A DNA stretch of 64,000 bases from Verrucomicrobiales bacterium. GTDB taxonomy: Bacteria > Verrucomicrobiota > Verrucomicrobiia > Verrucomicrobiales > SLCJ01. Below the pieces are notes generated by a model, which saw only the letters and a program-made list of their open reading frames with translations, did no database searches and was not told the origin of the DNA. Position 1 is the stretch's first letter. Every line of letters starts with the position of its first letter. A program made the translations under genes and the position numbers. The DNA is taken from contig JAGXGH010000127.1 of the NCBI GenBank assembly GCA_024636835.1, positions 124,001-188,000 on the forward strand, given 5' to 3'. Below are positions 48,963-64,000 of the stretch, one piece after another.

Positions 48963-49516
48963 CGGTTCCTGAGAAATTGCTCGACCTCGACAATACCATG
49001 TTCGGCACTATTTGCCAAGGGAATGAAACGGGGCGTATTCGCATTCCAAAAACACCATTCGTCCGCCAAGGGCAAATAGATCTCCGTAAGATTACGCATG
49101 ATGCGCGGGTAGCGGCGGTGAATATCGACATCGGGCACGTGGTGACCGCCTTTTTTTACCCGCTGTTTCACGCGTCGAATCGATTCCTCCGGTGAGGCAA
49201 GCCAGAGAAAGTGAAGAATAACCTGATATCCAGCGTCTTTGGCATTGCGAATGGTCAACGCGTGGCCGCGTCCGCTAATCGTGGACTCCAGGGCAAAATC
49301 AGCTTTGCGTTCGGTGAGCTCGCGACACTCCTCGATCAATATCCGCCCCGCCTTAAACCCGACGGATGCCGGATCAAAGGGCGATAGGCCGCGCGCAATC
49401 TCGTCGGCATTCACGAAGCGCGTTCCCTTCATCTCGTGGGTCAGGAACTCCGCGGCGAAGGTGGTTTTCCCCGCGCCGTTCGGTCCTGTGATCAATAATA
49501 AAGTCGGGCGTGTCAT
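48959..49516 (-). CDS. Zeta-toxin-family P-loop kinase
   Basis: 185 residues. Walker A LLITGPNGAGKTTFAAEFL (about 7-25), NADEIARGLSPFDP, ALESTISGRGHALTIRNAKDAGY and LWLASPEESIRRVKQRVKKGGHHVP are typical of the stand-alone zeta-like kinases, about 190 residues long. Classical zeta toxins phosphorylate UDP-N-acetylglucosamine and block wall synthesis; the substrate of this small branch is less certain. Its ATG overlaps the coaB stop (ATGA) and its stop overlaps the small downstream gene. Confidence 0.9.
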   Translation of the reverse strand: MTRPTLLLITGPNGAGKTTFAAEFLTHEMKGTRFVNADEIARGLSPFDPASVGFKAGRILIEECRELTERKADFALESTISGRGHALTIRNAKDAGYQVILHFLWLASPEESIRRVKQRVKKGGHHVPDVDIHRRYPRIMRNLTEIYLPLADEWCFWNANTPRFIPLANSAEHGIVEVEQFLRNR

Positions 49517-50163
49517 GTCTGCGGTGTGGTGATCCCATCGATGATGCGGGTAGCGAGTTCGCGCTTGGCGCCTGAGGCGGTGAAGACTTCACCATTTCGG
49601 CTGAGAAGGGTGACTGAGTTATTATCCGACTCGAACCCAGAGTTTGGAATCGAGACGTCGTTGGCGGCGAGGAAATCGCAACTTTTCCGCAGCAACTTAT
49701 CCTGTGCATTGGCGATGAGGTTTTCCGTCTCAGCAGCAAACCCAACGAGCGTGCCCGTGAACCCTAAAGGCTCTCTCATCGATCCAAGGATGTCTTGTGT
49801 AGGAACGAGCTGAAGGGTCATCGTGTCCTGACCCGATTTTTTGATCTTTTGTTGGGCGGGATCGGCCGGTGTGAAATCCGCAACGGCTGCACAGAGGATC
49901 GCGAGATCGATTGTGCTGATGTTCGACGAGACAGCAGCATACATTTCCGCGGCCGATGTGACATTAACGCGATGAACTCCAGCCGGCGTGGGAAGATTCA
50001 CCGGCCCGGCAATAAGCGTGACCTCATGACCAGCGGCAACAGCTGCATCGGCGAGCGCGAATCCCATTTTCCCCGACGAGCGGTTGCCAATAAATCGCAC
50101 CGGATCAATCGCCTCATGGGTGGGGCCGGCGGTGATGAGGACACGAAGTGGTGAAGCTGGCAT
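49513..50163 (-). CDS. coaB: Phosphopantothenate-cysteine ligase, separate CoaB
   Basis: 216 residues. [34 protein letters not shown] is the CoaB nucleotide-binding start, read here in two parts ([17 protein letters not shown] and [17 protein letters not shown]); [21 protein letters not shown] holds the conserved Lys, and LVGFAAET follows. It is normally fused to CoaC; here the two are separate genes 145 bp apart in the order coaC-coaB. CoaB joins 4'-phosphopantothenate and cysteine in coenzyme A synthesis. Confidence 0.93.
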
Positions 50164-50308: not shown

Positions 50309-50839
50309 TTAGCACCATTTTTCTTGAATACGCTCGACGATGCCGTCGACTTCCCAAAGGCGACCGGTGCCTTCGTAGCCGCAGGCGAGGAGTCCGTCTT
50401 CAGGGCCGATAAATTCCGTTCCGCGCTGTTTCAGTGTCTCGACATTGGCTTGTGTGGCTGGGTGTTCCCACATCTTCCCGTTCATCGCGGGTGCCATCAG
50501 CAGCGGCGCTTTGGTCGCGAGGTAAATCGCACCCATTGCATTGTCCGCCAAACCGTGGGCGAACTTGGCAATGACGTTGGCGGTGGCGGGCGCGATCACC
50601 ATCAAGTCGGCATTATCAGCGAGTTCGATGTGCCCGGGGTGCCACGATTCCTTTTCGTCGTAGAGACTGGTCGTGACGGGAAACTTCGACAACACCTGCA
50701 AGGTCAAGGGCGTGATAAACTCGGTAGCGTCACGGGTCATCACGACATGCACTTCGTGACCAAGCTTGGTGAGTTTGCTAGTAAGGTCCGCCGCCTTGTA
50801 GGCAGCGATCGATCCGGTGACGCCGAGGACGATGTTCAT
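50309..50839 (-). CDS. coaC: Phosphopantothenoylcysteine decarboxylase, separate CoaC
   Basis: 176 residues, a flavoprotein of the HFCD family. MNIVLGVTGSIAAYKAADLT, SWHPGHIELA with the catalytic His, and APAMNGKMWEHPATQANVETL with the substrate clamp are intact. It decarboxylates phosphopantothenoylcysteine using FMN. Fifty-one bases follow the gmk stop, and no rpoZ lies between them although that is its usual place. Confidence 0.95.
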   Translation of the reverse strand: MNIVLGVTGSIAAYKAADLTSKLTKLGHEVHVVMTRDATEFITPLTLQVLSKFPVTTSLYDEKESWHPGHIELADNADLMVIAPATANVIAKFAHGLADNAMGAIYLATKAPLLMAPAMNGKMWEHPATQANVETLKQRGTEFIGPEDGLLACGYEGTGRLWEVDGIVERIQEKWC

Positions 50840-54577: not shown

Positions 54578-56809
54578 TTATTCTTTCTTCAGTTCGTCTA
54601 GAAACGTGAGTAGTTCCTTGCTGCGGGGTTCCTTGCCCACGTTTTCCCATTTACCATCAATCCGTTCCTGCTTGTCAACAAGCTCAGCCGCCATCGCCCT
54701 GTAGGAATTACCGTCAGCATATGGTTTGTCAGGATCTGATCCGGCCTCAATGAGAATCCGAACGATCTTTTTCAAGTTTGCGAGTTGTTCCTCACGATCT
54801 TCATCATTGTAACTTGAAGGAAAAGAATAGGCGAGGGGCGGCAGACCATCGATGTCGTTGTAATCCACTTTGGCACCACGCCTGACTAATAGTTCTACAA
54901 CTGATGCCCTTTGATTGATGACCGCAAGATGAAGGGGTGTTCTGTTTTTTCTTTGCGGCCCACCTACTCCGCACGGCAAGGGTTCCGGCTCGCCAGACTT
55001 GGCTTCAATATTTGCACCCCGATCTATGAGAAGTTTAATAACCTCAACAGATCCTGCACTGGCTGCCCTATGGAGGGGTGTCTCTTCGTCGGGATCGAGG
55101 CCTTCAATGTGCCAACCTCGATCAAGTAGCAGGGCAAGAACACTCACTCGGTTAAGCGATGCTGCCTCGTGGATAACAGGCGAATCTGTGAGAAATTCAC
55201 TAGAATTTGGTGGAGCTTGAGGCATGAGAAATTCAGAGACAACAGGTGCTCTAACTGGAAAGGAAGTAAGTTGTCCAATGTCCCTACCATCGTCGATAGT
55301 GCTCTGAGTATTTTCAGCGAGAGGATGTGCCAGATTAGCGAGAGCAAGCGCTACTTGGGTATGTCCGTTGACAATCGCCTTACGAAGGCAAGCATCCAGT
55401 TGCTCGTTGGAATAACACAGGTCGTCATTTTGTTGCGAAAGCAGGAAGTTGACCGTTTCCGTTTTTCCATTTGTCGCTGCATAAATCAGTGGCGATCTTC
55501 CGGAGTCTCCCTGAAAGGCATTCCACGATTGAGGTTTTACGGCGAGAAATCGCTTGATGGTATCAATGTCGCCTAGCCCTGCTGCGGCAAAAATGTCGAT
55601 GGCTGAGCCTTCTGAAATGAGATATTTCGTGATCGGTTTGTCACTTTGAAAAAGCGCCTCATGAAGCGGCGAAATACCGTCGATGGAATAGCTGTCGAGA
55701 GGAGAACCAGCTTCAAGAGCGAGTTTGACATGAGATAGCATTCCGGATTGAACGGCGATATGGGTAGCGGATTCCAGCTTATCCGTTCGAGCTAACGGAG
55801 ATGCTCCTTTGTTAAGCAGAAGTTGGATGACCGCGATATCATCTGCATCAGAATCTTTCCAGTGAGGACTAAGGGCATAGTGAAGCGGAGTCGATCCGCT
55901 GCTATCTTTCAGCTCGGTAGGCGCACCCATTTCCAAAAGCTGATTAACGAATTCCAGGTCCCGATTTCTGACGGCGAGGTGTAGAAAACTTTCATCGTGG
56001 TAGGCGCCCCTATTATTTATCGCGTAGCTCAGGATTTCGGGCACACGTTTTGCCACGGTCGTGATCTCATCTAATTTTGGACGAAACATGTCGATTTCAA
56101 GCCCCTCAGCCTTCAATTTCTCATCTACAAGATTGCGGCTATGACTTGCAAAATGAGAACGTATCCGCCCCTCCATGAGAGAGGGCTTGAGCCATCCTTG
56201 GCGTGCAATAATCTCACCTTTTTCGCTGATGAAGATTCCGGTATTTGGACCACCACCAAAAAGTTGCCAGACTTTGTTGGTAAGTCCATCAACAACCAGT
56301 CGGGATTCGATTCCAAATTTCTTACGATACTCGCGCGCTCTTTCGATTCGCGAAGAAATAGTATCCGGCTCATCGACGAGTATCTTTTCCATGAGATTAC
56401 GATCAGTGATCCATTCCATCTTTCCTCCCTCGCTGTAGGGTGATGGGCTCCCGACCGGATGTGCTTCCGTGGTGTACAGCACGACTACCTGAATCTTATC
56501 ACCATAATCCGTTCTAATGCGGTCGACATGAGGACAGTTGTCCCGAGAGACCGGACAGGTGAGAGAGCTATGCACAAGGAGGACGGGCTTTTCACTCCAT
56601 AAGTCTTTGAGTTTGGTTTGGGAGCCATCAAGCTCATGAACAATCAAATCACCATAGACAGCGAGATCCGTGGGATAGAGATTGTCCTGATCAAGCCCCC
56701 ATGATTCGAAGCGCGGGATAATCTTCGGCCGACCTACTTCACCAGGTCCAGCCATCAGCGTTGAAACCTGCAAAAGCAGTATCGCGAGGTAAAAAAAACA
56801 CCACTTCAC
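54578..56809 (-). CDS. Exported deiodinase/thioredoxin-like domain fused to ankyrin repeats
   Basis: 743 residues. Signal peptide at about 1-20. Residues about 45-215 have a thioredoxin fold close to iodothyronine-deiodinase-like proteins: VLLVHSSLTCPVSRDNCPHV with a TCP motif (Cys, not selenocysteine), VVLYTTEAHPVGSP and a later NTGIFISEKGEIIARQGW. Residues about 255-740 hold ten or so ankyrin repeats (DESFLHLAVRNRDLEFVNQLLEMGA, SGSTPLHYALS, EETPLHRAASAGSVEVIKLL, RTPLHLAVINQRASVVELL). It is likely periplasmic, and the ankyrins may bind a protein partner. Redox target unknown; activity depends on the single TCP cysteine. Confidence 0.8.
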   Translation of the reverse strand: MKWCFFYLAILLLQVSTLMAGPGEVGRPKIIPRFESWGLDQDNLYPTDLAVYGDLIVHELDGSQTKLKDLWSEKPVLLVHSSLTCPVSRDNCPHVDRIRTDYGDKIQVVVLYTTEAHPVGSPSPYSEGGKMEWITDRNLMEKILVDEPDTISSRIERAREYRKKFGIESRLVVDGLTNKVWQLFGGGPNTGIFISEKGEIIARQGWLKPSLMEGRIRSHFASHSRNLVDEKLKAEGLEIDMFRPKLDEITTVAKRVPEILSYAINNRGAYHDESFLHLAVRNRDLEFVNQLLEMGAPTELKDSSGSTPLHYALSPHWKDSDADDIAVIQLLLNKGASPLARTDKLESATHIAVQSGMLSHVKLALEAGSPLDSYSIDGISPLHEALFQSDKPITKYLISEGSAIDIFAAAGLGDIDTIKRFLAVKPQSWNAFQGDSGRSPLIYAATNGKTETVNFLLSQQNDDLCYSNEQLDACLRKAIVNGHTQVALALANLAHPLAENTQSTIDDGRDIGQLTSFPVRAPVVSEFLMPQAPPNSSEFLTDSPVIHEAASLNRVSVLALLLDRGWHIEGLDPDEETPLHRAASAGSVEVIKLLIDRGANIEAKSGEPEPLPCGVGGPQRKNRTPLHLAVINQRASVVELLVRRGAKVDYNDIDGLPPLAYSFPSSYNDEDREEQLANLKKIVRILIEAGSDPDKPYADGNSYRAMAAELVDKQERIDGKWENVGKEPRSKELLTFLDELKKE

Positions 56810-56877: not shown

Positions 56878-59800
56878 TCAGGTTAGCTCCGTGTATCCTT
56901 TTTGTTTTTTCTGGCGAATAGCACGACGGTAGTCGGCGATCGCCTTTTCTTCAGTATCGTGGCTGCGCTCACGTGTCTGCCCGTTGGTTCCCTGTTTACC
57001 AAAGTGCACGATGACCGAGCTGCCAATCCGCTGAATGTTCCAGAATTTAACGTTGCCATTTTCTTCGTGAATCAGAGAGGTTTTCTCCCCATCTGATGTC
57101 AGCTCAGAGGAGGGGCTTGGTTCACTATCAACCGGTGGAGCGGTCTCCGTTTCAGGCTCATCCGCAGGCTCCGTCACCTCATCGACTGCATTTTCAAAAT
57201 CGGCTTTGGGGTCGGCCATCAGGCGGTCGATCTTTTCCAAAACTTCGTCGGGGGCATCGTGCCAGTCTTTGGCGAGCACTTCCAACACCCGCCATCCAAA
57301 CGCTTCCAGCAGCGCGGGACGCAACACATACTGTTCGATGACCGGCACGTTCACAGACGGTTGGGAATCGACCAGTAAAATACCGAGTTGATAGTGGTCT
57401 TCTCCGGGCTGACGCAGAGCGAGATCACAACGGAAGTTTGATTGACCCACCTGCGAGTCCACGCGGTAACCGCGCTGGATAAGTGCGCTGCGTAGTGTCT
57501 GCGAAAGTGCGGATGAGGATGTGGCCTCAGCCTCACCGCCGGAGATTCCCAGCACACGGCGGGCGGCTTGATCATTTCCGGTGCAGACGGCTTCGGCGTA
57601 TTCGAGGAATTGTTTCAAACAACGGGCCCCATCGTTGTAGTCATTGGTGATCGCGTTTGAGCGGATGGAGCTGACGATGACCATGTGTCTTTTGGCACGG
57701 GAGAAAATCACGTTCAGCCGTTTCTCACCGCCGGTGCGATTGATCGGACCGAAGTTCATACGCATCTTACCTTTGGCGTCCGGGCCGTAACAGATACTCA
57801 GAATCATGATGTCACGCTCATCGCCCTGCACGTTCTCCAGATTCTTCACAAACAGCCCGCAAAACTGCCCATCCTCCTCGCGCTCGACTTCATCGGCGAG
57901 CTGGGCGCGGAAGGTTTCATCCTGATCGGCGAGTTGAGTGAGGGCGGAATCAATCTCGTTTTGTTGCGCTTCTGAAAAAGCAACGATGCCGATACTCAGG
58001 CCGGTGTTGCGGGCGAGAATCGCACGGACTTGATGAGCGATGTAATACGCTTCCTGACTGTTCTTGCGATTTTCATAAACGGCGGAATTTTGAAACGGGA
58101 AGCTGATGCTGCGGGACAAAATCTCTTCGCTGTGATCAGGCGCATCCTCGCCGGTCTGCGCCGACAGAGGTGTGTTCTCTCCGGTATCGCCGATCAAGTC
58201 GGGAATGGTGAGGAGATTGCCGTGGTAGAATTTTCTGTTTGAAAAACTGATCAGGGACTCGAAGTGACTGCGGTAATGCCATCCGAGCATGGTCGAGGAC
58301 AGGCTGCGTTGAGCGTGACTCAGGAAGCTATCCGCGCCGAGATCATATTCTTCCTGCTCATCATCATCCTCAAAGATAAGGGTGTCATCGTCATCGCTTT
58401 TTGAGGCGAAGAAATCTGTCGGCGGCAGCTGCATCTCATCCCCCACGACGATGACCTGCTCTGCGCGGTAAATGGCCGGCACCGCTTCTTCCAAACGGAT
58501 CTGGCTGGCTTCATCAAAGATGACCACATCGAAATCCACCTCTCCGAGTGCGATGGTGTCGGAAATACTCAGCGGGCTCATCAACCAGATCGGTTTGAGG
58601 CCGTTAAGCACCTTGCCACTGTCGCCCGAGGAGAGATCGCGGATGGAGCGGTATCGCATGGTTTTGGAGAACTCGTGCTCGAGTTCGCGCCGACCTTTGT
58701 TGAAAATTTTCTTATGCTCTTTTTCCGTCTCGCTAAGTTGCGCAGCGGGTTTTGAGGCGGTCTCGTAAGCGGTGCGGAATTTTCTGCGAGCGCGCTCCAC
58801 GGTGCGATCACCGTTGAGGCTCATCCAATGCTTGCGAGCGTCGAGGATACGTTTGCCGTGGCGGCGGAGAATCCAACCTTCGAAGCGTTTCAACGAGCGA
58901 TCCTCGCGATAGGCCGACTCCAGACTCTTGGCCGCGCAGTGTCGTTCAAAATCATCCGGGGTGAACTCGCGAGTGCGTAGCGTTTCATGGAGAAGCGCTG
59001 AGGCGTCACTCAGATCGAGAAGCTCTGGTAGGATTTCGGGCAACAAGCTGACGGACTTTTCCAGCTCTGTGAGAACTTCCGTGAGTTCGGGCAACGTCCA
59101 GCCACCAGGCAGCATGATGAACTCACCCAGCAAAGCAGAGAGCTGGCGCAGAGGCTCTTGCATTGAGGCGAGCGTTTCCAAAGTGGCGCGGGTATGGTCG
59201 TCCCCCTCTAACAAGGATTGATAGAACGCTTCATCGTCCTCACGGTCCACAGTGATCGCATTGCGTCGGGCGACAAACTCCTCCACTTTCCCGCGCACTT
59301 GTTCGAGCTCGGTGACGCCCAGCGACTCCGACATGGCGTCGTCGAGTTCACTGAGCTTGTCGGCTTCTTGATACTCGGTGCGCAGTTTTGACAACGCCTC
59401 CGACCAGGATGGATGAATCGTGTGGGCGGAAAAGTTGTAATGCCCGCGCATGATTTTGCGCAGCTTCCAGAATCTAGGTTGGAAAAATTTCAACGCGGAG
59501 TTCTCGACCGCTGTTGCCTGGGCGAGTGCGGCGTCGACCTCGGACGGAGCGATTTTGATCATCCAGTTCTGCGTGTGCTGCCGTGCCTTTTCCAGCTGCT
59601 TGAACTGCTTGTCGCGTTTGCTGACGAAGGATACGAAGTCTTGTGCCGACTGATTGTTAGGATCGAGCAGGCCGAGCAAGTTACGTCTGGCTAAGAACCG
59701 AGCACTCTCCGCGACGAAGGAAAGATGCAGTAACTCGTCCAACGAACAGGTGGCTGTGGAGAACGCAAAGTTGCTTGTGGCCTGATGTAACGTTGCTACA

Positions 59801-62343
59801 TCACCAAGAGCCCGAGTAATTTTCCCCTTCAAACTCGCCACCGGATTCTCCCACTCATAACATGAACGGTTCAAATATTTGAATGATGTGGCTGCGTAGA
59901 CATTTCCTAAATCGATGTCTTCGAGAGCCTGGCCAAGTCGTCTAACGATTTGCCCGTGAATCACCCACTCCTCATAGCCTGGCAATGACACATCGTCACC
60001 TGCGCCTTCCGTCTTGCCTCCGAGCGCCAGTAGGCGTTCCAGGAGTTCTTCAACGGAGTAGCGGCCGTCTTTCCTGCGGCTACTCATCGCCTCGGCAAAT
60101 CGCTCGATCACCTCGAGCTCGCGCTGTGCGGTTTTACAGGCGTCGCTGGCCTGGGATTCGAGATCTTTCACGTCTGTAGCATCGTTGGTGAACGCCTCGT
60201 AGGTATCGCGAAGGTCGTGGATAAACGATTTTTTATCGGCTTGGGAGTCGTGGATCAAGCAGGTGACTTTATCCAAGCCCTGTGAAGCCAGGCGATGGTA
60301 AACCACATCCAGTGCCGCGCGCTTTTCGCAGACAAATAACACCCGTTTTCCCTCCGCTACGTAGTTGGTGATCAGGTTGGTGATCGTCTGGGATTTTCCA
60401 GTTCCTGGAGGGCCTTGGATGATGAGGTTCTGACCGGAGCGTGCGGCAGCGATGGCGGAAACCTGGGTAGGATCAGCGGCAACGATCAGGTGCTGCTCGT
60501 CCATGGGCAGCTCAGCAAGCTCAGGCGTTTCTATTTCATCGTCCAGGAGTGAAAACACTTCGTCAAATGCGCTGTTAGGCCGCTCTTGTTCGAGCAGTGT
60601 GTTGTAGTCACGCACCAGCGACATCTTCCGGTAGTTGAAATTCCCCAGAGTGAGCGAGCAGAGATCGAAGTCCCAGACATAAGGATTTTCCTCGCTGCCT
60701 TCGCGCAGCGAGTAGCTCTCACGCTTTTTCTCCATCGTCGGAGCAGCGGCGACCTGTGGCATCCGTGGTGCCGGTCTATCCCTGACAAGATGCTCCAAGG
60801 GAAGCTCAACATGCTGAACGCGGTGGAGGAATATTTGCAGCCCGAGTGGCTGGAAATTATCGCGTTTGTAGCTGTAGGAGAGACTATCGTAACTTTGCAC
60901 AGACCGCCCCGAGAGCTTGCGGCGGTGGAGGAACTTGTCGAGCCGCTTGCGCGCTGTCTCGTAGATGAGGTCGATCCTTGGTCGCTCAAGTTTTTTCACC
61001 TCCACGGCAGGTTCGCTGGCGTTGATTTGTTTTTTCAGTGCCTCATAGAGTGAGTCCACGGAAGTTTCCGCCAGGTCGATCGCCTCGGGAAGATCCAGAT
61101 TATAGAGCTGTTTAAGGCAGTGACGCAGCACGGGGTTCACCTCGGCAACACTGCCTACGGCTTGCAAGTGCCAGCTGTCTCTCACACCTTTCTTTTTGAT
61201 CAACTCCACCGGATGCAGCAGCAGCGGCGAGTGAATGCGGGTGGCTTTGTCCTCCTTGAGATTATGCCAGCGGAAAAAGGCGATCACCAAACGCAGCTGG
61301 GCGAATCCGTATTCCTTGCGATCACGGTTGGCATCACGACGGATGGTGTCGAGCGAGTGCGGCAGGTAGGCCGCATCCTCGAAACGTAGATACCGATTGA
61401 GCGGGATTTCTTTTTCCGTTGCAAGCGATTCTGCAAGCCAATCCTGCCAAGTGAACAACTGCTCAGGCCGGATGTTCCGGTAGTCGAGCATTGTCGGCAC
61501 CGAGGAGACCGTGAGGTTGACGGTCTGCATCGTCGGCCGGAAATGGATCAGACGGTTGCGTTTGTTCACCTCGAATAGACGGTCACGCAGCTTGGAGTGA
61601 ATCATCTGCCGCTTGTCGTTCAGCGGCGCCGAAACAAAACCCAGCTCGTTGATCAGACTGAGGTCGTCGGTTTCCTTCTGGTCTCGATAGTTCCTGAGGT
61701 AGGTGATCAGGATACGCAGGTCTTGCACACGGTCGCTGCGGCGAAGCTCGGTCATGCGCAGGATAGCGGAAGCGACCACGGGGTGGAGTCGCGGACAAAG
61801 CGTGTGAATGGTGCTGCGCCCATCGGCAAAAGTTTCCAGACCCTCTTCCGTGGCAAGATCCAGCCCGGTGGCGAGCGCGGCCAACAGCATGCCTAAGGAA
61901 AAAATATCCGTCAGCGCATCGTGCTGGCCGCAGAGGTGCTCCCAACTGCGGTATTGCGTGACATAACAGGGCTGTGGCGGCGCGGTTTCACCGGACCAGA
62001 TGCGTTTGTTCGCATTTTCCAAGGTGCCTTCGTTGAGATCGGCATCGACGCTGCGTCGATCAATCACATCAAAAAATTGACCACGGTCATCACCTTCCAC
62101 GGCGTGGATGGAGCGAGAGTTGTGAGGCTCGATTTCCGCACCGGCATGATACCAAACCTGGCCTCGGGTCACCTTTAGGTCATCGAGCGATTCAAGCGGG
62201 GCGACCATACCGCGATCGTGCGCTTGCAGGACTTCTTGCATCAGCGGCAGCAAGGCGCTAAGCGCATCGTCGGTCTCGAAGCCACCGTTTTCCTCCCCGG
62301 CGGTTTGGAAATCGCGGAAACTTAGCGATTCGACTTCGGGCAT
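56878..62343 (-). CDS. Kinase-like/DUF4011/SF1 helicase/MTES_1575-type nuclease/WGR fusion protein
   Basis: 1,821 residues from the ATG at 62343, ten bases after the peptidase stop. Domains by residue: 30-225 a protein-kinase-like C-lobe (ALTDIFSLGMLLAALATGL) with no N-lobe and no HRD; about 235-520 a DUF4011-like region (RDRLFEVNKRNRLIHFRPT); an SF1 helicase with Walker A IQGPPGTGKSQT (642-653), Walker B VVIFDEASQIRLEEA (near 1273-1287), QGDERDIMI and RLNVIFSRAKRHMVIV; 1617-1700 an MTES_1575/Vsr-type nuclease-like domain (FRCDLALRQ, LGILLVDSQ, EAFGWRVLEVLAKDW); 1755-1815 a WGR domain (VKFWNIQRIG, QKGYTEL). It is soluble. Domain mixture suggests recognition and processing of foreign nucleic acid. 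Confidence 0.85.
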   Translation of the reverse strand: MPEVESLSFRDFQTAGEENGGFETDDALSALLPLMQEVLQAHDRGMVAPLESLDDLKVTRGQVWYHAGAEIEPHNSRSIHAVEGDDRGQFFDVIDRRSVDADLNEGTLENANKRIWSGETAPPQPCYVTQYRSWEHLCGQHDALTDIFSLGMLLAALATGLDLATEEGLETFADGRSTIHTLCPRLHPVVASAILRMTELRRSDRVQDLRILITYLRNYRDQKETDDLSLINELGFVSAPLNDKRQMIHSKLRDRLFEVNKRNRLIHFRPTMQTVNLTVSSVPTMLDYRNIRPEQLFTWQDWLAESLATEKEIPLNRYLRFEDAAYLPHSLDTIRRDANRDRKEYGFAQLRLVIAFFRWHNLKEDKATRIHSPLLLHPVELIKKKGVRDSWHLQAVGSVAEVNPVLRHCLKQLYNLDLPEAIDLAETSVDSLYEALKKQINASEPAVEVKKLERPRIDLIYETARKRLDKFLHRRKLSGRSVQSYDSLSYSYKRDNFQPLGLQIFLHRVQHVELPLEHLVRDRPAPRMPQVAAAPTMEKKRESYSLREGSEENPYVWDFDLCSLTLGNFNYRKMSLVRDYNTLLEQERPNSAFDEVFSLLDDEIETPELAELPMDEQHLIVAADPTQVSAIAAARSGQNLIIQGPPGTGKSQTITNLITNYVAEGKRVLFVCEKRAALDVVYHRLASQGLDKVTCLIHDSQADKKSFIHDLRDTYEAFTNDATDVKDLESQASDACKTAQRELEVIERFAEAMSSRRKDGRYSVEELLERLLALGGKTEGAGDDVSLPGYEEWVIHGQIVRRLGQALEDIDLGNVYAATSFKYLNRSCYEWENPVASLKGKITRALGDVATLHQATSNFAFSTATCSLDELLHLSFVAESARFLARRNLLGLLDPNNQSAQDFVSFVSKRDKQFKQLEKARQHTQNWMIKIAPSEVDAALAQATAVENSALKFFQPRFWKLRKIMRGHYNFSAHTIHPSWSEALSKLRTEYQEADKLSELDDAMSESLGVTELEQVRGKVEEFVARRNAITVDREDDEAFYQSLLEGDDHTRATLETLASMQEPLRQLSALLGEFIMLPGGWTLPELTEVLTELEKSVSLLPEILPELLDLSDASALLHETLRTREFTPDDFERHCAAKSLESAYREDRSLKRFEGWILRRHGKRILDARKHWMSLNGDRTVERARRKFRTAYETASKPAAQLSETEKEHKKIFNKGRRELEHEFSKTMRYRSIRDLSSGDSGKVLNGLKPIWLMSPLSISDTIALGEVDFDVVIFDEASQIRLEEAVPAIYRAEQVIVVGDEMQLPPTDFFASKSDDDDTLIFEDDDEQEEYDLGADSFLSHAQRSLSSTMLGWHYRSHFESLISFSNRKFYHGNLLTIPDLIGDTGENTPLSAQTGEDAPDHSEEILSRSISFPFQNSAVYENRKNSQEAYYIAHQVRAILARNTGLSIGIVAFSEAQQNEIDSALTQLADQDETFRAQLADEVEREEDGQFCGLFVKNLENVQGDERDIMILSICYGPDAKGKMRMNFGPINRTGGEKRLNVIFSRAKRHMVIVSSIRSNAITNDYNDGARCLKQFLEYAEAVCTGNDQAARRVLGISGGEAEATSSSALSQTLRSALIQRGYRVDSQVGQSNFRCDLALRQPGEDHYQLGILLVDSQPSVNVPVIEQYVLRPALLEAFGWRVLEVLAKDWHDAPDEVLEKIDRLMADPKADFENAVDEVTEPADEPETETAPPVDSEPSPSSELTSDGEKTSLIHEENGNVKFWNIQRIGSSVIVHFGKQGTNGQTRERSHDTEEKAIADYRRAIRQKKQKGYTELT

Positions 62344-62353
62344 TTCCGCTTCT

Positions 62354-63532
62354 TCACTCACTGGCAGCCTCCTTTCTGCTTTCAGCAGCAGCTTGCGCGA
62401 CCATTTTTTCGGCATTCGCTTGGATACGTGCGGTGTCGCGTTTGAGAAGTTTAAGTTCCTTTCTCGCGAGTTCTTCAAACCGATCCGACCACCCAAGTTC
62501 CTCTGCCGTCAGGAAAGAAGCGGCCAAAGCATAATCCTCCAACTCGCGATCCGCCCAAGCAAAATCGAGTAATAAATAGCACCCGTAGTCGCGGGCTTTT
62601 TCATCGGCGTCCTGCCAGTCGGCGAGAATTTGCTCGCTTGTCACCATGGAGGGCTGCATGCCATTTGGAAAGAAATAACTCGCGTGTGTCTTGATTCTAC
62701 CGGTGCGCATCCAGTCGTGTCTGAGCAAATAATTCACCATGCGCTGAGTGACCTCGGTCATGCGTTCCTGGCCGAGCAGATCGAGTTCATCAAAGCCGGT
62801 GCTGCCCTCGATCATCTCATCGATTGCGGCTTCACAGTTCTCATCCTCAGCCGACCAGAGCGCGATGGCCCGCGCCCTGATATAGGTCTCCGGGTGAGTG
62901 ATGCCCTCCGCTTTGACCGGACCTCTGGCAAAAATATCCTCTGCCTGTTTTAAGTAGCTTTCCGCATCCACATCCTCGATACCGGTGGAAACCTTGACCA
63001 GCAGCGAGACGGCAGCATGCCCGTCAGTGGCCATCAGCGCGGCACCTCTATCGGCATAAACTTCGGTGTAAAGTTGCCACAAGCGCGCGCTTTCCTGATG
63101 GCCGGGAGTGGCGCGCGGTTCATTCGCAAGTGTATGCAGCAGCCGATCTGTCACCAGGAAGTCGCCGTGGGAAACAGTCCACAACTTAAAGTGCGCCAAC
63201 TCGTGACCGACCAGTGCCCGTTGTTCGTCTTTATCCAGAAGTTTTAGAATCCCACCGACAAACACAAGATGTCCATGCCCCGGGGTGAAATAGAGCGCGG
63301 CGGACGTGCGCCCGGATTCCTGCGCCTGATAAAGGGTGACCGGAACATCGAGTTCCAGCAGCTGCAATGCTTCATCGACCAATGTATAGAGCTCCTGATG
63401 CTTCGCTCTATCCATCCGATAGGTTGTTTTGAGCAGCTCAAACTGAACCGCTTCGGCGTAGTCCGATTGAGCCTCCGTGGAAGCGAACCAATCCCAAAGC
63501 TCGCGATGCCGCGACTTCAGAAAGTCGCCCAT
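62354..63532 (-). CDS. M48-like zinc metallopeptidase, operon partner of the helicase fusion protein
   Basis: 392 residues from the ATG at 63532, where the conserved text begins (MGDFLKSRHRELWDWF); the frame is open upstream to 63565. The zinc site HELAH is at 110-114 and the third ligand is probably Glu157 in TEVYADRGAAL, the normal M48 spacing. A preceding helix (LVFVGGILKLLDKDEQRALVG) is family-typical, but no membrane segment is present, unlike HtpX or Ste24p. The C-terminal half is helical and charged. It lies directly upstream of the giant helicase gene, in one operon. Confidence 0.82.
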   Translation of the reverse strand: MGDFLKSRHRELWDWFASTEAQSDYAEAVQFELLKTTYRMDRAKHQELYTLVDEALQLLELDVPVTLYQAQESGRTSAALYFTPGHGHLVFVGGILKLLDKDEQRALVGHELAHFKLWTVSHGDFLVTDRLLHTLANEPRATPGHQESARLWQLYTEVYADRGAALMATDGHAAVSLLVKVSTGIEDVDAESYLKQAEDIFARGPVKAEGITHPETYIRARAIALWSAEDENCEAAIDEMIEGSTGFDELDLLGQERMTEVTQRMVNYLLRHDWMRTGRIKTHASYFFPNGMQPSMVTSEQILADWQDADEKARDYGCYLLLDFAWADRELEDYALAASFLTAEELGWSDRFEELARKELKLLKRDTARIQANAEKMVAQAAAESRKEAASE

Positions 63533-64000
63533 GCGGAGGTGATAAGGAAGGGGACATAAAAGCACGACGACACTTCATCCCAAGGAGAACACTCCGTCAA
63601 TTCCCCGTCTCGATTTTCTATCAGGTTTAACCAGTACGACAGGAATGGCAGGTTGTGGTTGAGCCAACTCGGAAGCAGCAGCGTCTCCGAGGCTACATCA
63701 AACCCTTAAATGATGGGTGTCCTTGGTCTTCTGCCGCCCCAAAATCCCTCGTGACATCAATGTCCCTCGATTGCAAAACGTCTGCGAGGAGACCAATGCC
63801 AAGAATCTAGGGATGGCTCAAAGACTACAGATGGGGCACCCCAACTATGTCAGCAATTTGGTCAACCAGATCTGAATATTTATATTTTGCGTTTGACCCC
63901 TTTTTCCCATGTGACGCCAAAATTCTCGGAAAGACTCAGGAGCTGGGGTCAGTCCCCGCCAGCTCACATTTATCTCCAAACGCCAAGCGCGCAATTTGTT
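63533..64000. other. Right-edge intergenic region
   Basis: About 470 bp with no credible complete gene. It contains a copy of the aaat.atg.gtgt motif (63708-63730) and an imperfect palindrome at 63941-63964 (agctggggtcagtccccgcc plus agct), of a type often found near REP-associated transposase genes. The upstream control region of the metallopeptidase operon should lie at its left end. Confidence 0.5.

What the first reader, a model, noticed from the sequence alone, without database searches (positions are those of the whole stretch)
56878..63532. Candidate undescribed defence operon: M48 metallopeptidase plus kinase-like/DUF4011/helicase/nuclease/WGR protein
The large protein joins modules known separately in immunity and DNA damage handling: DUF4011-type SF1 helicases with Vsr-like ends and kinase-helicase fusions such as Mokosh have been reported as phage defence (from memory). 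A soluble M48-like protease directly upstream, ten bases away, is not a partner I know. A protease could release or switch the helicase-nuclease, or be its effector.
Basis: partly seen in the sequence, partly recalled or inferred. Interest (0 to 1): 0.8.

Follow-up and report, generated by a model that had tools for sequence, protein, structure and literature searches.

The report
Protease paired with a dead-nuclease helicase
A protein-cutting enzyme and a giant DNA/RNA motor protein are encoded together, and travel and evolve together, in scattered bacteria of at least five phyla; the motor's own kinase and DNA-cutting parts have decayed, so the protease is probably the weapon or switch of an undescribed, still untested, immune-type system.

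Summary
The M48 gene is 63565-62354(-). The helicase gene starts at GTG 62361, overlapping the M48 stop codon by 8 nt. Its N-terminus is a protein-kinase fold with no N-lobe and no HRD/DFG motifs. The Vsr-like C-terminal domain has lost its catalytic residues. The intact activities are the SF1 ATPase and the M48 protease (HEXXH + E invariant in 86/86).

The pair is a real, near-obligate unit: 79 of 80 contigs from five phyla carry the helicase directly downstream (the other contig ends there), the two trees match (Mantel r 0.95), and one genome fuses M48 to the helicase. In Pseudomonas it is a ~7 kb promoter-pair cassette in 8 of 250 species at unrelated sites.

Evidence for defence is indirect. 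The helicase is a divergent relative of PDC-S37/ProA/Hhe. In five Verrucomicrobiota loci, on separated tree branches, a type XIII retron module follows the pair (RT seen in four). Most neighbours are housekeeping, and neither plasmids nor phages carry the M48.

Best model: nucleic-acid-sensing helicase scaffold, with the protease replacing the lost nuclease as effector (inferred). Rivals: protease as regulator; DNA-protein crosslink repair. No phage challenge exists. New variant of a known kind.

The parts
62354..63565 (-). M48-family metallopeptidase gene, 403 aa (GTG start 63565; ATG 63532 would give 392 aa)
   Evidence: Pfam PF01435 E 5.8e-8; AF2 pLDDT 95, structure matches BepA/ZMPSTE24/HtpX/selecase weakly; PLPYH motif of relatives upstream of ATG 63532
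63191..63205 (-). HELAH zinc-binding/catalytic motif (H110, E111, H114 counted from ATG 63532)
   Evidence: H, E, H invariant in 86/86 relatives
63050..63064 (-). third-ligand motif E157-x3-D161 (TEVYAD)
   Evidence: E157 and D161 invariant in 86/86
62354..62361 (-). 8-nt overlap GTGAGTGA: helicase start codon overlaps the M48 stop; Shine-Dalgarno AGGAGG at 62368-62373
   Evidence: overlap of -4 to -13 nt is usual in relatives
56878..62361 (-). giant SF1 helicase-like protein gene, 1827 aa
   Evidence: 79 of 80 genome-contig loci have it directly downstream of M48
61642..62361 (-). N-terminal pseudokinase C-lobe domain (aa 1-240), HRD replaced by VAPL, no N-lobe
   Evidence: AF2 + Foldseek, profile, Ser/Thr kinases as next-best genomic hits, column counts
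61114..61581 (-). DUF4011 domain (aa 261-416)
   Evidence: PF13195 E 4.6e-14
60391..60411 (-). Walker A PPGTGKS (aa 651-657)
   Evidence: P651, P652, G653, K656 and S657 invariant in 86/86
57667..58515 (-). SF1 motifs II-VI (DEASQ 1283, GDxxQLPP 1307, QGDERD 1512, SRA 1554) incl. AAA_12
57226..57498 (-). degenerate Vsr/MTES_1575-type nuclease fold (aa 1622-1712), catalytic E lost
   Evidence: PF18741 E 1.5e-12; active-site comparison
56887..57066 (-). C-terminal WGR domain (aa 1766-1825), present in 68/86 relatives
   Evidence: PF05406 E 4.6e-11, column counts

Best explanation
A two-gene, horizontally spread accessory system in which a cytosolic M48 metalloprotease works with a giant SF1 helicase-like ATPase. 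The helicase (WGR + DUF4011 + motor + dead nuclease fold) binds and remodels an abnormal or foreign nucleic acid, and its pseudokinase and dead nuclease serve as docking or regulatory modules. The conformational change unleashes the attached protease, which cuts host or phage proteins and stops the infection. In effect the ancestral helicase-nuclease has exchanged its nuclease effector for a partner protease. In some Verrucomicrobiota the same unit stands in front of a type XIII retron in place of the usual WGR_XIII protein. Shown: pairing, co-evolution, one fusion, intact protease and ATPase motifs, decayed kinase and nuclease, retron linkage. Inferred: nucleic-acid trigger, physical complex, protease as effector, anti-phage role.
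For: Pair in 79/80 contig loci of Verrucomicrobiota, Planctomycetota, Bacteroidota, Pseudomonadota and Myxococcota. Matching trees, r 0.95 against a null maximum of 0.11; 39/45 supported M48 splits recur. Single-chain fusion M48-helicase-dead nuclease, whose M48 is closest to the paired family. M48 active site 86/86; Walker A 86/86. Kinase and nuclease sites decayed. Patchy: 8/250 Pseudomonas species, mostly unrelated flanks but the same promoter-like leader in ten Pseudomonas loci. Retron XIII genes directly downstream in five loci, four with an RT gene, intact YADD motif in the two read. RT_XIII at 400 bits or more in only 2/309 phylum genomes, Fisher p 0.003 against 4/45. Canonical type XIII there is WGR-SWIM-RT, so the helicase's WGR may take the WGR slot. 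Septu-like gene beside one Pseudomonas copy.
Against: No direct functional data. Neighbours are mostly housekeeping genes, including the window's own (ftfL, gmk, coaB/coaC, yicC by sequence). Absent from plasmids and phages and from viral contigs. One genome (G184) keeps an intact helicase with no M48, so the helicase may have an M48-independent role. The retron link is confined to one phylum and 5 of 79 loci with visible downstream sequence; X shows no significant similarity to WGR_XIII. The 45-locus denominator is my approximate count of Verrucomicrobiota loci, and the loci are not phylogenetically independent.
Confidence: 0.5

Rival explanations
1. The M48 protease is a regulator, not the effector: it cleaves or degrades the helicase (or an inhibitor) to switch the helicase on or off, as ImmA/IrrE-type proteases do with their repressors; the helicase itself is the effector that unwinds or displaces phage nucleic acid.
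For: Helicase can exist without M48 in G184 while no M48 of this family without its helicase was seen; the M48 gene comes first and the two are translationally coupled.
Against: The helicase has lost nuclease catalysis, so on its own it has no degradative output; fusion of M48 to the helicase fits an effector or cis-tool equally well or better.
Confidence: 0.22
2. DNA-protein crosslink or other DNA-damage repair: the helicase translocates to protein-blocked DNA and the M48 digests the protein, analogous in work to SPRTN/Wss1.
For: WGR is a DNA-damage-associated domain in PARPs (general knowledge); SF1 motor and zinc protease in one unit or one chain; housekeeping neighbourhoods rather than defence islands.
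Against: Extremely patchy (8/250 Pseudomonas; 5-6 of about 380 genomes sampled in the phylum) and found at different sites, unlike core repair genes; association with type XIII retrons.
Confidence: 0.18
3. Ordinary PDC-S37/Hhe-type anti-phage helicase with an incidental neighbour.
For: 669 bits to PDC-S37 over the helicase/nuclease part.
Against: The pair is near-obligate and co-evolving; below NCBIfam cut-offs of ProA (669 of 1500) and Hhe (465 of 2000); nuclease active site lost and a 250-aa pseudokinase added, for which four of the five canonical relatives examined have no room (15 residues or fewer there; L133 has 410 untested residues).
Confidence: 0.05

Closest known systems
PADLOC PDC-S37 / NCBIfam NF058533 anti-phage protein ProA
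   Same: DUF4011 region, split SF1 helicase core, MTES_1575-type C-terminal fold; 669 bits
   Different: Known type has the intact nuclease motif RIDLA..GIECDG..H; the five plasmid relatives examined have no M48 neighbour and four lack room for the N-terminal domain. Score is less than half of the ProA cut-off.
Hhe (PADLOC PDLC02194, NCBIfam NF042953)
   Same: Same helicase superfamily and fold order; 320-465 bits
   Different: Far below the 2000-bit cut-off; the new protein has a dead nuclease, a pseudokinase and a protease partner
Mokosh (MkoA/MkoC)
   Same: AAA_11/AAA_12-type helicase core (128 bits); kinase-helicase combination recalled from memory
   Different: No PLD-type partner found; kinase part here is a dead C-lobe; M48 partner
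Type XIII retron (RT_XIII, SWIM_XIII, WGR_XIII, HEAT-ARM_XIII in PADLOC)
   Same: In four loci SWIM_XIII and an RT_XIII-type gene follow the pair (a fifth is cut off after X); WGR domain on the helicase tail
   Different: No WGR_XIII protein; instead M48 + helicase-WGR + unknown 622-629-aa protein X; most pairs have no retron nearby
M48 peptidases HtpX, BepA, Oma1/Ste24, selecase
   Same: Zincin core HEXXH...E
   Different: No membrane segments apparent, own helical C-terminal half; no good whole-length structural match in PDB

Membership tests
M48 metallopeptidase | HEXXH + downstream Glu (ExxxD) zinc site | tested here: met
   86/86 conserved; Pfam above cut-off, 33.2 against 20.3 bits
PDC-S37 / ProA anti-phage family | profile score at curated cut-off | tested here: not met
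   669.2 bits against 1500
PDC-S37 / ProA anti-phage family | intact Vsr/MTES_1575 nuclease motif | tested here: not met
   catalytic E lost in the compared rows, D variable
PDC-S37 / ProA anti-phage family | anti-phage activity | not testable with these tools
   needs phage challenge
Hhe | NCBIfam equivalog cut-off | tested here: not met
   465.6 bits against 2000
Mokosh | active kinase domain joined to helicase | tested here: not met
   no N-lobe, HRD or DFG; the feature itself is recalled from memory
Mokosh | MkoA/MkoC-level similarity over the full protein | tested here: not met
   128 bits, partial cover
Type XIII retron | RT_XIII reverse transcriptase in the operon | tested here: not met
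   Not met at the window (no RT_XIII in the window's genome at E 1e-60); met in four related loci
Type XIII retron | WGR_XIII or HEAT-ARM_XIII + SWIM_XIII accessory proteins | tested here: inconclusive
   SWIM_XIII present in related loci, WGR_XIII protein replaced by helicase-WGR and X
Protein kinase (active) | P-loop N-lobe, HRD and DFG motifs | tested here: not met
Defence-island gene | neighbourhood enriched in defence genes | tested here: not met
   Few plausible PADLOC hits in 312 neighbours beyond the retron genes and one Septu-like gene; no random-gene control was run

The most novel reading that the evidence does not exclude
A new class of immune system in which a helicase-nuclease lost nuclease and kinase catalysis and took on a dedicated M48 protease as its effector, and which in some lineages takes the place of the WGR component of type XIII retrons, so that retron state gates a protease.
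Probability: 0.33. Interest if true: 0.86.

Novelty: new variant of a known kind. Interest (0 to 1): 0.7.

Why it matters
If right, it shows how a nucleic-acid surveillance helicase can swap its effector from DNA cutting to protein cutting, joins proteases, pseudokinases and retrons in one design, and gives a compact, testable two-gene cassette from cultivable Pseudomonas. It would also assign a function to an M48 family of unknown role found in about 200 species genomes.

Tried and rejected
Ten-base spacing between the genes: rejected, since the coupled GTG start is better. Active kinase: rejected. Active nuclease: rejected on motif loss. Defence-island enrichment: not found; the GajB/RTasHel hits are two UvrD-like genes in Chitinophagaceae flanks, probably housekeeping, and the PD-T4-6 hits look like generic kinases (judged from the family only). 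Spread on plasmids or phages: no match for M48. Identity with the P. aeruginosa DUF4011 core gene that flanks cDHS1 (PMC10250203): not tested; the M48 pair is in only 8/250 Pseudomonas species, so it is unlikely to be the same gene. Clean empty site in Pseudomonas: not obtained; in relatives the upstream flank similarity ends near 9691 of L107, but the downstream flank is not adjacent. X as the split C-terminus of WGR_XIII: not supported (hhalign probability 2%). TerB-like C-terminus of the M48: the fusion protein aligns through it, but no Pfam TerB match in the window protein, left open. Known ncRNA in the retron loci: no Rfam match. Literature searches for the pair, ProA and type XIII retrons gave nothing usable in the held library.

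Full report
What is there. On the minus strand at the right end of the window lie an M48 metallopeptidase gene (63565-62354) and a 1827-residue helicase gene (62361-56878). The better start is the GTG at 62361, which overlaps the M48 stop (GTGAGTGA) and has AGGAGG six bases upstream. Relatives usually overlap by 4-13 nt as well. The M48 start is probably GTG 63565, because relatives begin with a PLPYH motif that the window encodes upstream of ATG 63532.

Domains. Pfam finds DUF4011, AAA_11, AAA_12, MTES_1575 and WGR in the large protein and Peptidase_M48 in the small one. No Pfam kinase is reported. A model of the first 250 residues built with 67 relatives has pLDDT 90, and the listed top 50 Foldseek matches are protein kinases. 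The profile weakly matches the C-lobes of AMPK and PLK1 (E 0.003). In Verrucomicrobiota genomes the next-best matches, after the true relatives, are ORFs of other lengths; the two I read are Ser/Thr kinases. The N-lobe is missing, the HRDL position reads VAPL (V 84, A 79, P 61, L 59 of 86) and DFG is absent apart from two stray matches. It is therefore a pseudokinase.

Dead nuclease. Five canonical DUF4011/DUF3320 relatives from plasmids keep SPFEE...RIDLA...GIECDGATYH. In the M48-linked family FEE and H are gone, the catalytic E is replaced (L in 75 of 82) and the D is S in 21. The SF1 motifs are intact: Walker A is invariant in 86 of 86. The M48 site is invariant in 86 of 86. The activities left are thus an ATPase motor and a protease; this is read from motifs, not measured.

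The pair is a unit. A scan of 84,980 species genomes found 199 places encoding the M48; the best 80 loci were kept, from Verrucomicrobiota, Planctomycetota, Bacteroidota, Pseudomonadota and Myxococcota. In 79 the helicase is the next related gene downstream on the same strand; the remaining contig ends inside the M48. In L060 and L076 an ORF called by length lies between the two. M48 and helicase trees agree: patristic distances correlate at 0.95 against a permutation maximum of 0.11, and 39 of 45 well-supported M48 splits recur in the helicase tree. Genome G223 carries one 1902-aa protein joining M48, helicase and degenerate nuclease. Its M48 is closest to the paired family and aligns with it over 358 columns. 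In the other direction, a pseudokinase profile found six strong hits in 376 Verrucomicrobiota genomes; five carry M48 and one, G184, has a solo helicase.

Mobility. The helicase tree mixes phyla. In Pseudomonas the M48 occurs in 8 of 250 sampled species. Ten Pseudomonas loci share about 150 bp of promoter-like leader, while sequence further upstream is mostly unrelated. So the operon behaves as a self-contained cassette. It is absent from 72,556 plasmids, 50,697 phages and the viral contigs, whereas related helicases without it occur on 420 plasmids.

Defence link. Among 312 neighbours few have plausible PADLOC matches: mainly retron parts, a Septu-like PtuA next to an ORF of HNH type in L089, and generic kinases or UvrD-like genes. 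No random-gene control was run. There is one clear pattern. In five Verrucomicrobiota loci (L031, L033, L039, L047, L060) the helicase is followed on the same strand by an unknown 622-629-aa protein X; the four loci that could be read further also carry SWIM_XIII and a reverse transcriptase. The two reverse transcriptases scanned score 431 and 448 bits to RT_XIII and keep YADD. L033 is cut by the contig end. On the helicase tree this needs five changes, and near neighbours such as L053, L054 and L035 lack it. RT_XIII at 400 bits or more occurs in 2 of 309 sampled genomes of the phylum. With four confirmed loci of roughly 45 from this phylum, Fisher's p is 0.003; both the denominator and independence are approximate. 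Two canonical type XIII retrons from the same phylum read WGR_XIII-SWIM_XIII-RT_XIII. In the M48 loci no WGR_XIII protein precedes X; a WGR domain sits on the tail of the helicase instead. That the helicase fills the WGR slot is an inference. The window's own genome shows no RT_XIII.

Function. Best model: helicase and WGR sense a nucleic-acid state, the pseudokinase and dead nuclease are scaffolds, and the protease is the output. Sequence shows the parts, their coupling and the loss of the other catalytic sites; trigger, complex, target and anti-phage role are inferred. Rivals are M48 as regulator, and DNA-protein crosslink repair. The published P. aeruginosa DUF4011 gene flanking a defence hotspot (PMC10250203) is in every isolate there, unlike this sporadic pair; I did not test whether they are related.

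Novelty. The helicase scores 669 bits to PDC-S37 and ProA, with a ProA cut-off of 1500, and 465 to Hhe, with a cut-off of 2000, so it is related to but not a member of those families. I found no description of the pair in the papers I could search, which exclude most subscription journals. I rate it a new variant of a known kind.

Noticed in passing
window 54578-56809 (-): A predicted secreted protein with a thioredoxin/deiodinase-like N-terminus (PF00837, 8e-5) and many ankyrin repeats starts 68 bp after the helicase on the same strand; it was not a recurrent neighbour in the loci of relatives that I tabulated.
   Followed up: partly
window 49513-50163 and 50309-50839 (-): Phosphopantothenate genes look like separate coaB and coaC ORFs about 145 bp apart rather than one fused coaBC (read from sequence only).
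   Followed up: no
L027:9977-4269 (-): One-chain M48-helicase fusion that carries a different stretch where the pseudokinase sits in the paired form.
   Followed up: yes
L161:9577-15228 (+): Solo copy of the helicase (pseudokinase, dead nuclease, WGR) with no M48 in the genome by search with the window M48.
   Followed up: yes
L166:709-5768, L167:979-5981, L168:220-5591, L169:178-5081: Non-canonical type XIII retron modules (X, SWIM, RT) directly after the M48-helicase pair; X (622-629 aa) matched no Pfam or PADLOC family in the copies scanned.
   Followed up: partly
L089:17764-21086 (+): PtuA-like ATPase gene followed by an HNH-like ORF (Septu-like) about 1.2 kb downstream of the pair in a Pseudomonas.
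   Followed up: partly
L091:3069-8514 (-): TniB-like ATPase and neighbouring ORFs that look like a Tn7/Tn5053-type transposon next to the pair in a Pseudomonas (read from sequence only).
   Followed up: no
L116 and L117 (Pseudomonas genome G507): M48 gene split in two adjacent pieces at about 47% identity to the query Pseudomonas copy; possibly a decaying copy.
   Followed up: no
L143:1240-3558 (-): Different M48 protein next to a gene with a TerB-like region, without a helicase in view; possibly another M48-based pair.
   Followed up: no
just beyond the window, L019:18228-18965 (-): An ORF near the contig end begins with VYKRQ, the usual translation of a Nextera adapter end, suggesting adapter sequence at the contig edge.
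   Followed up: no
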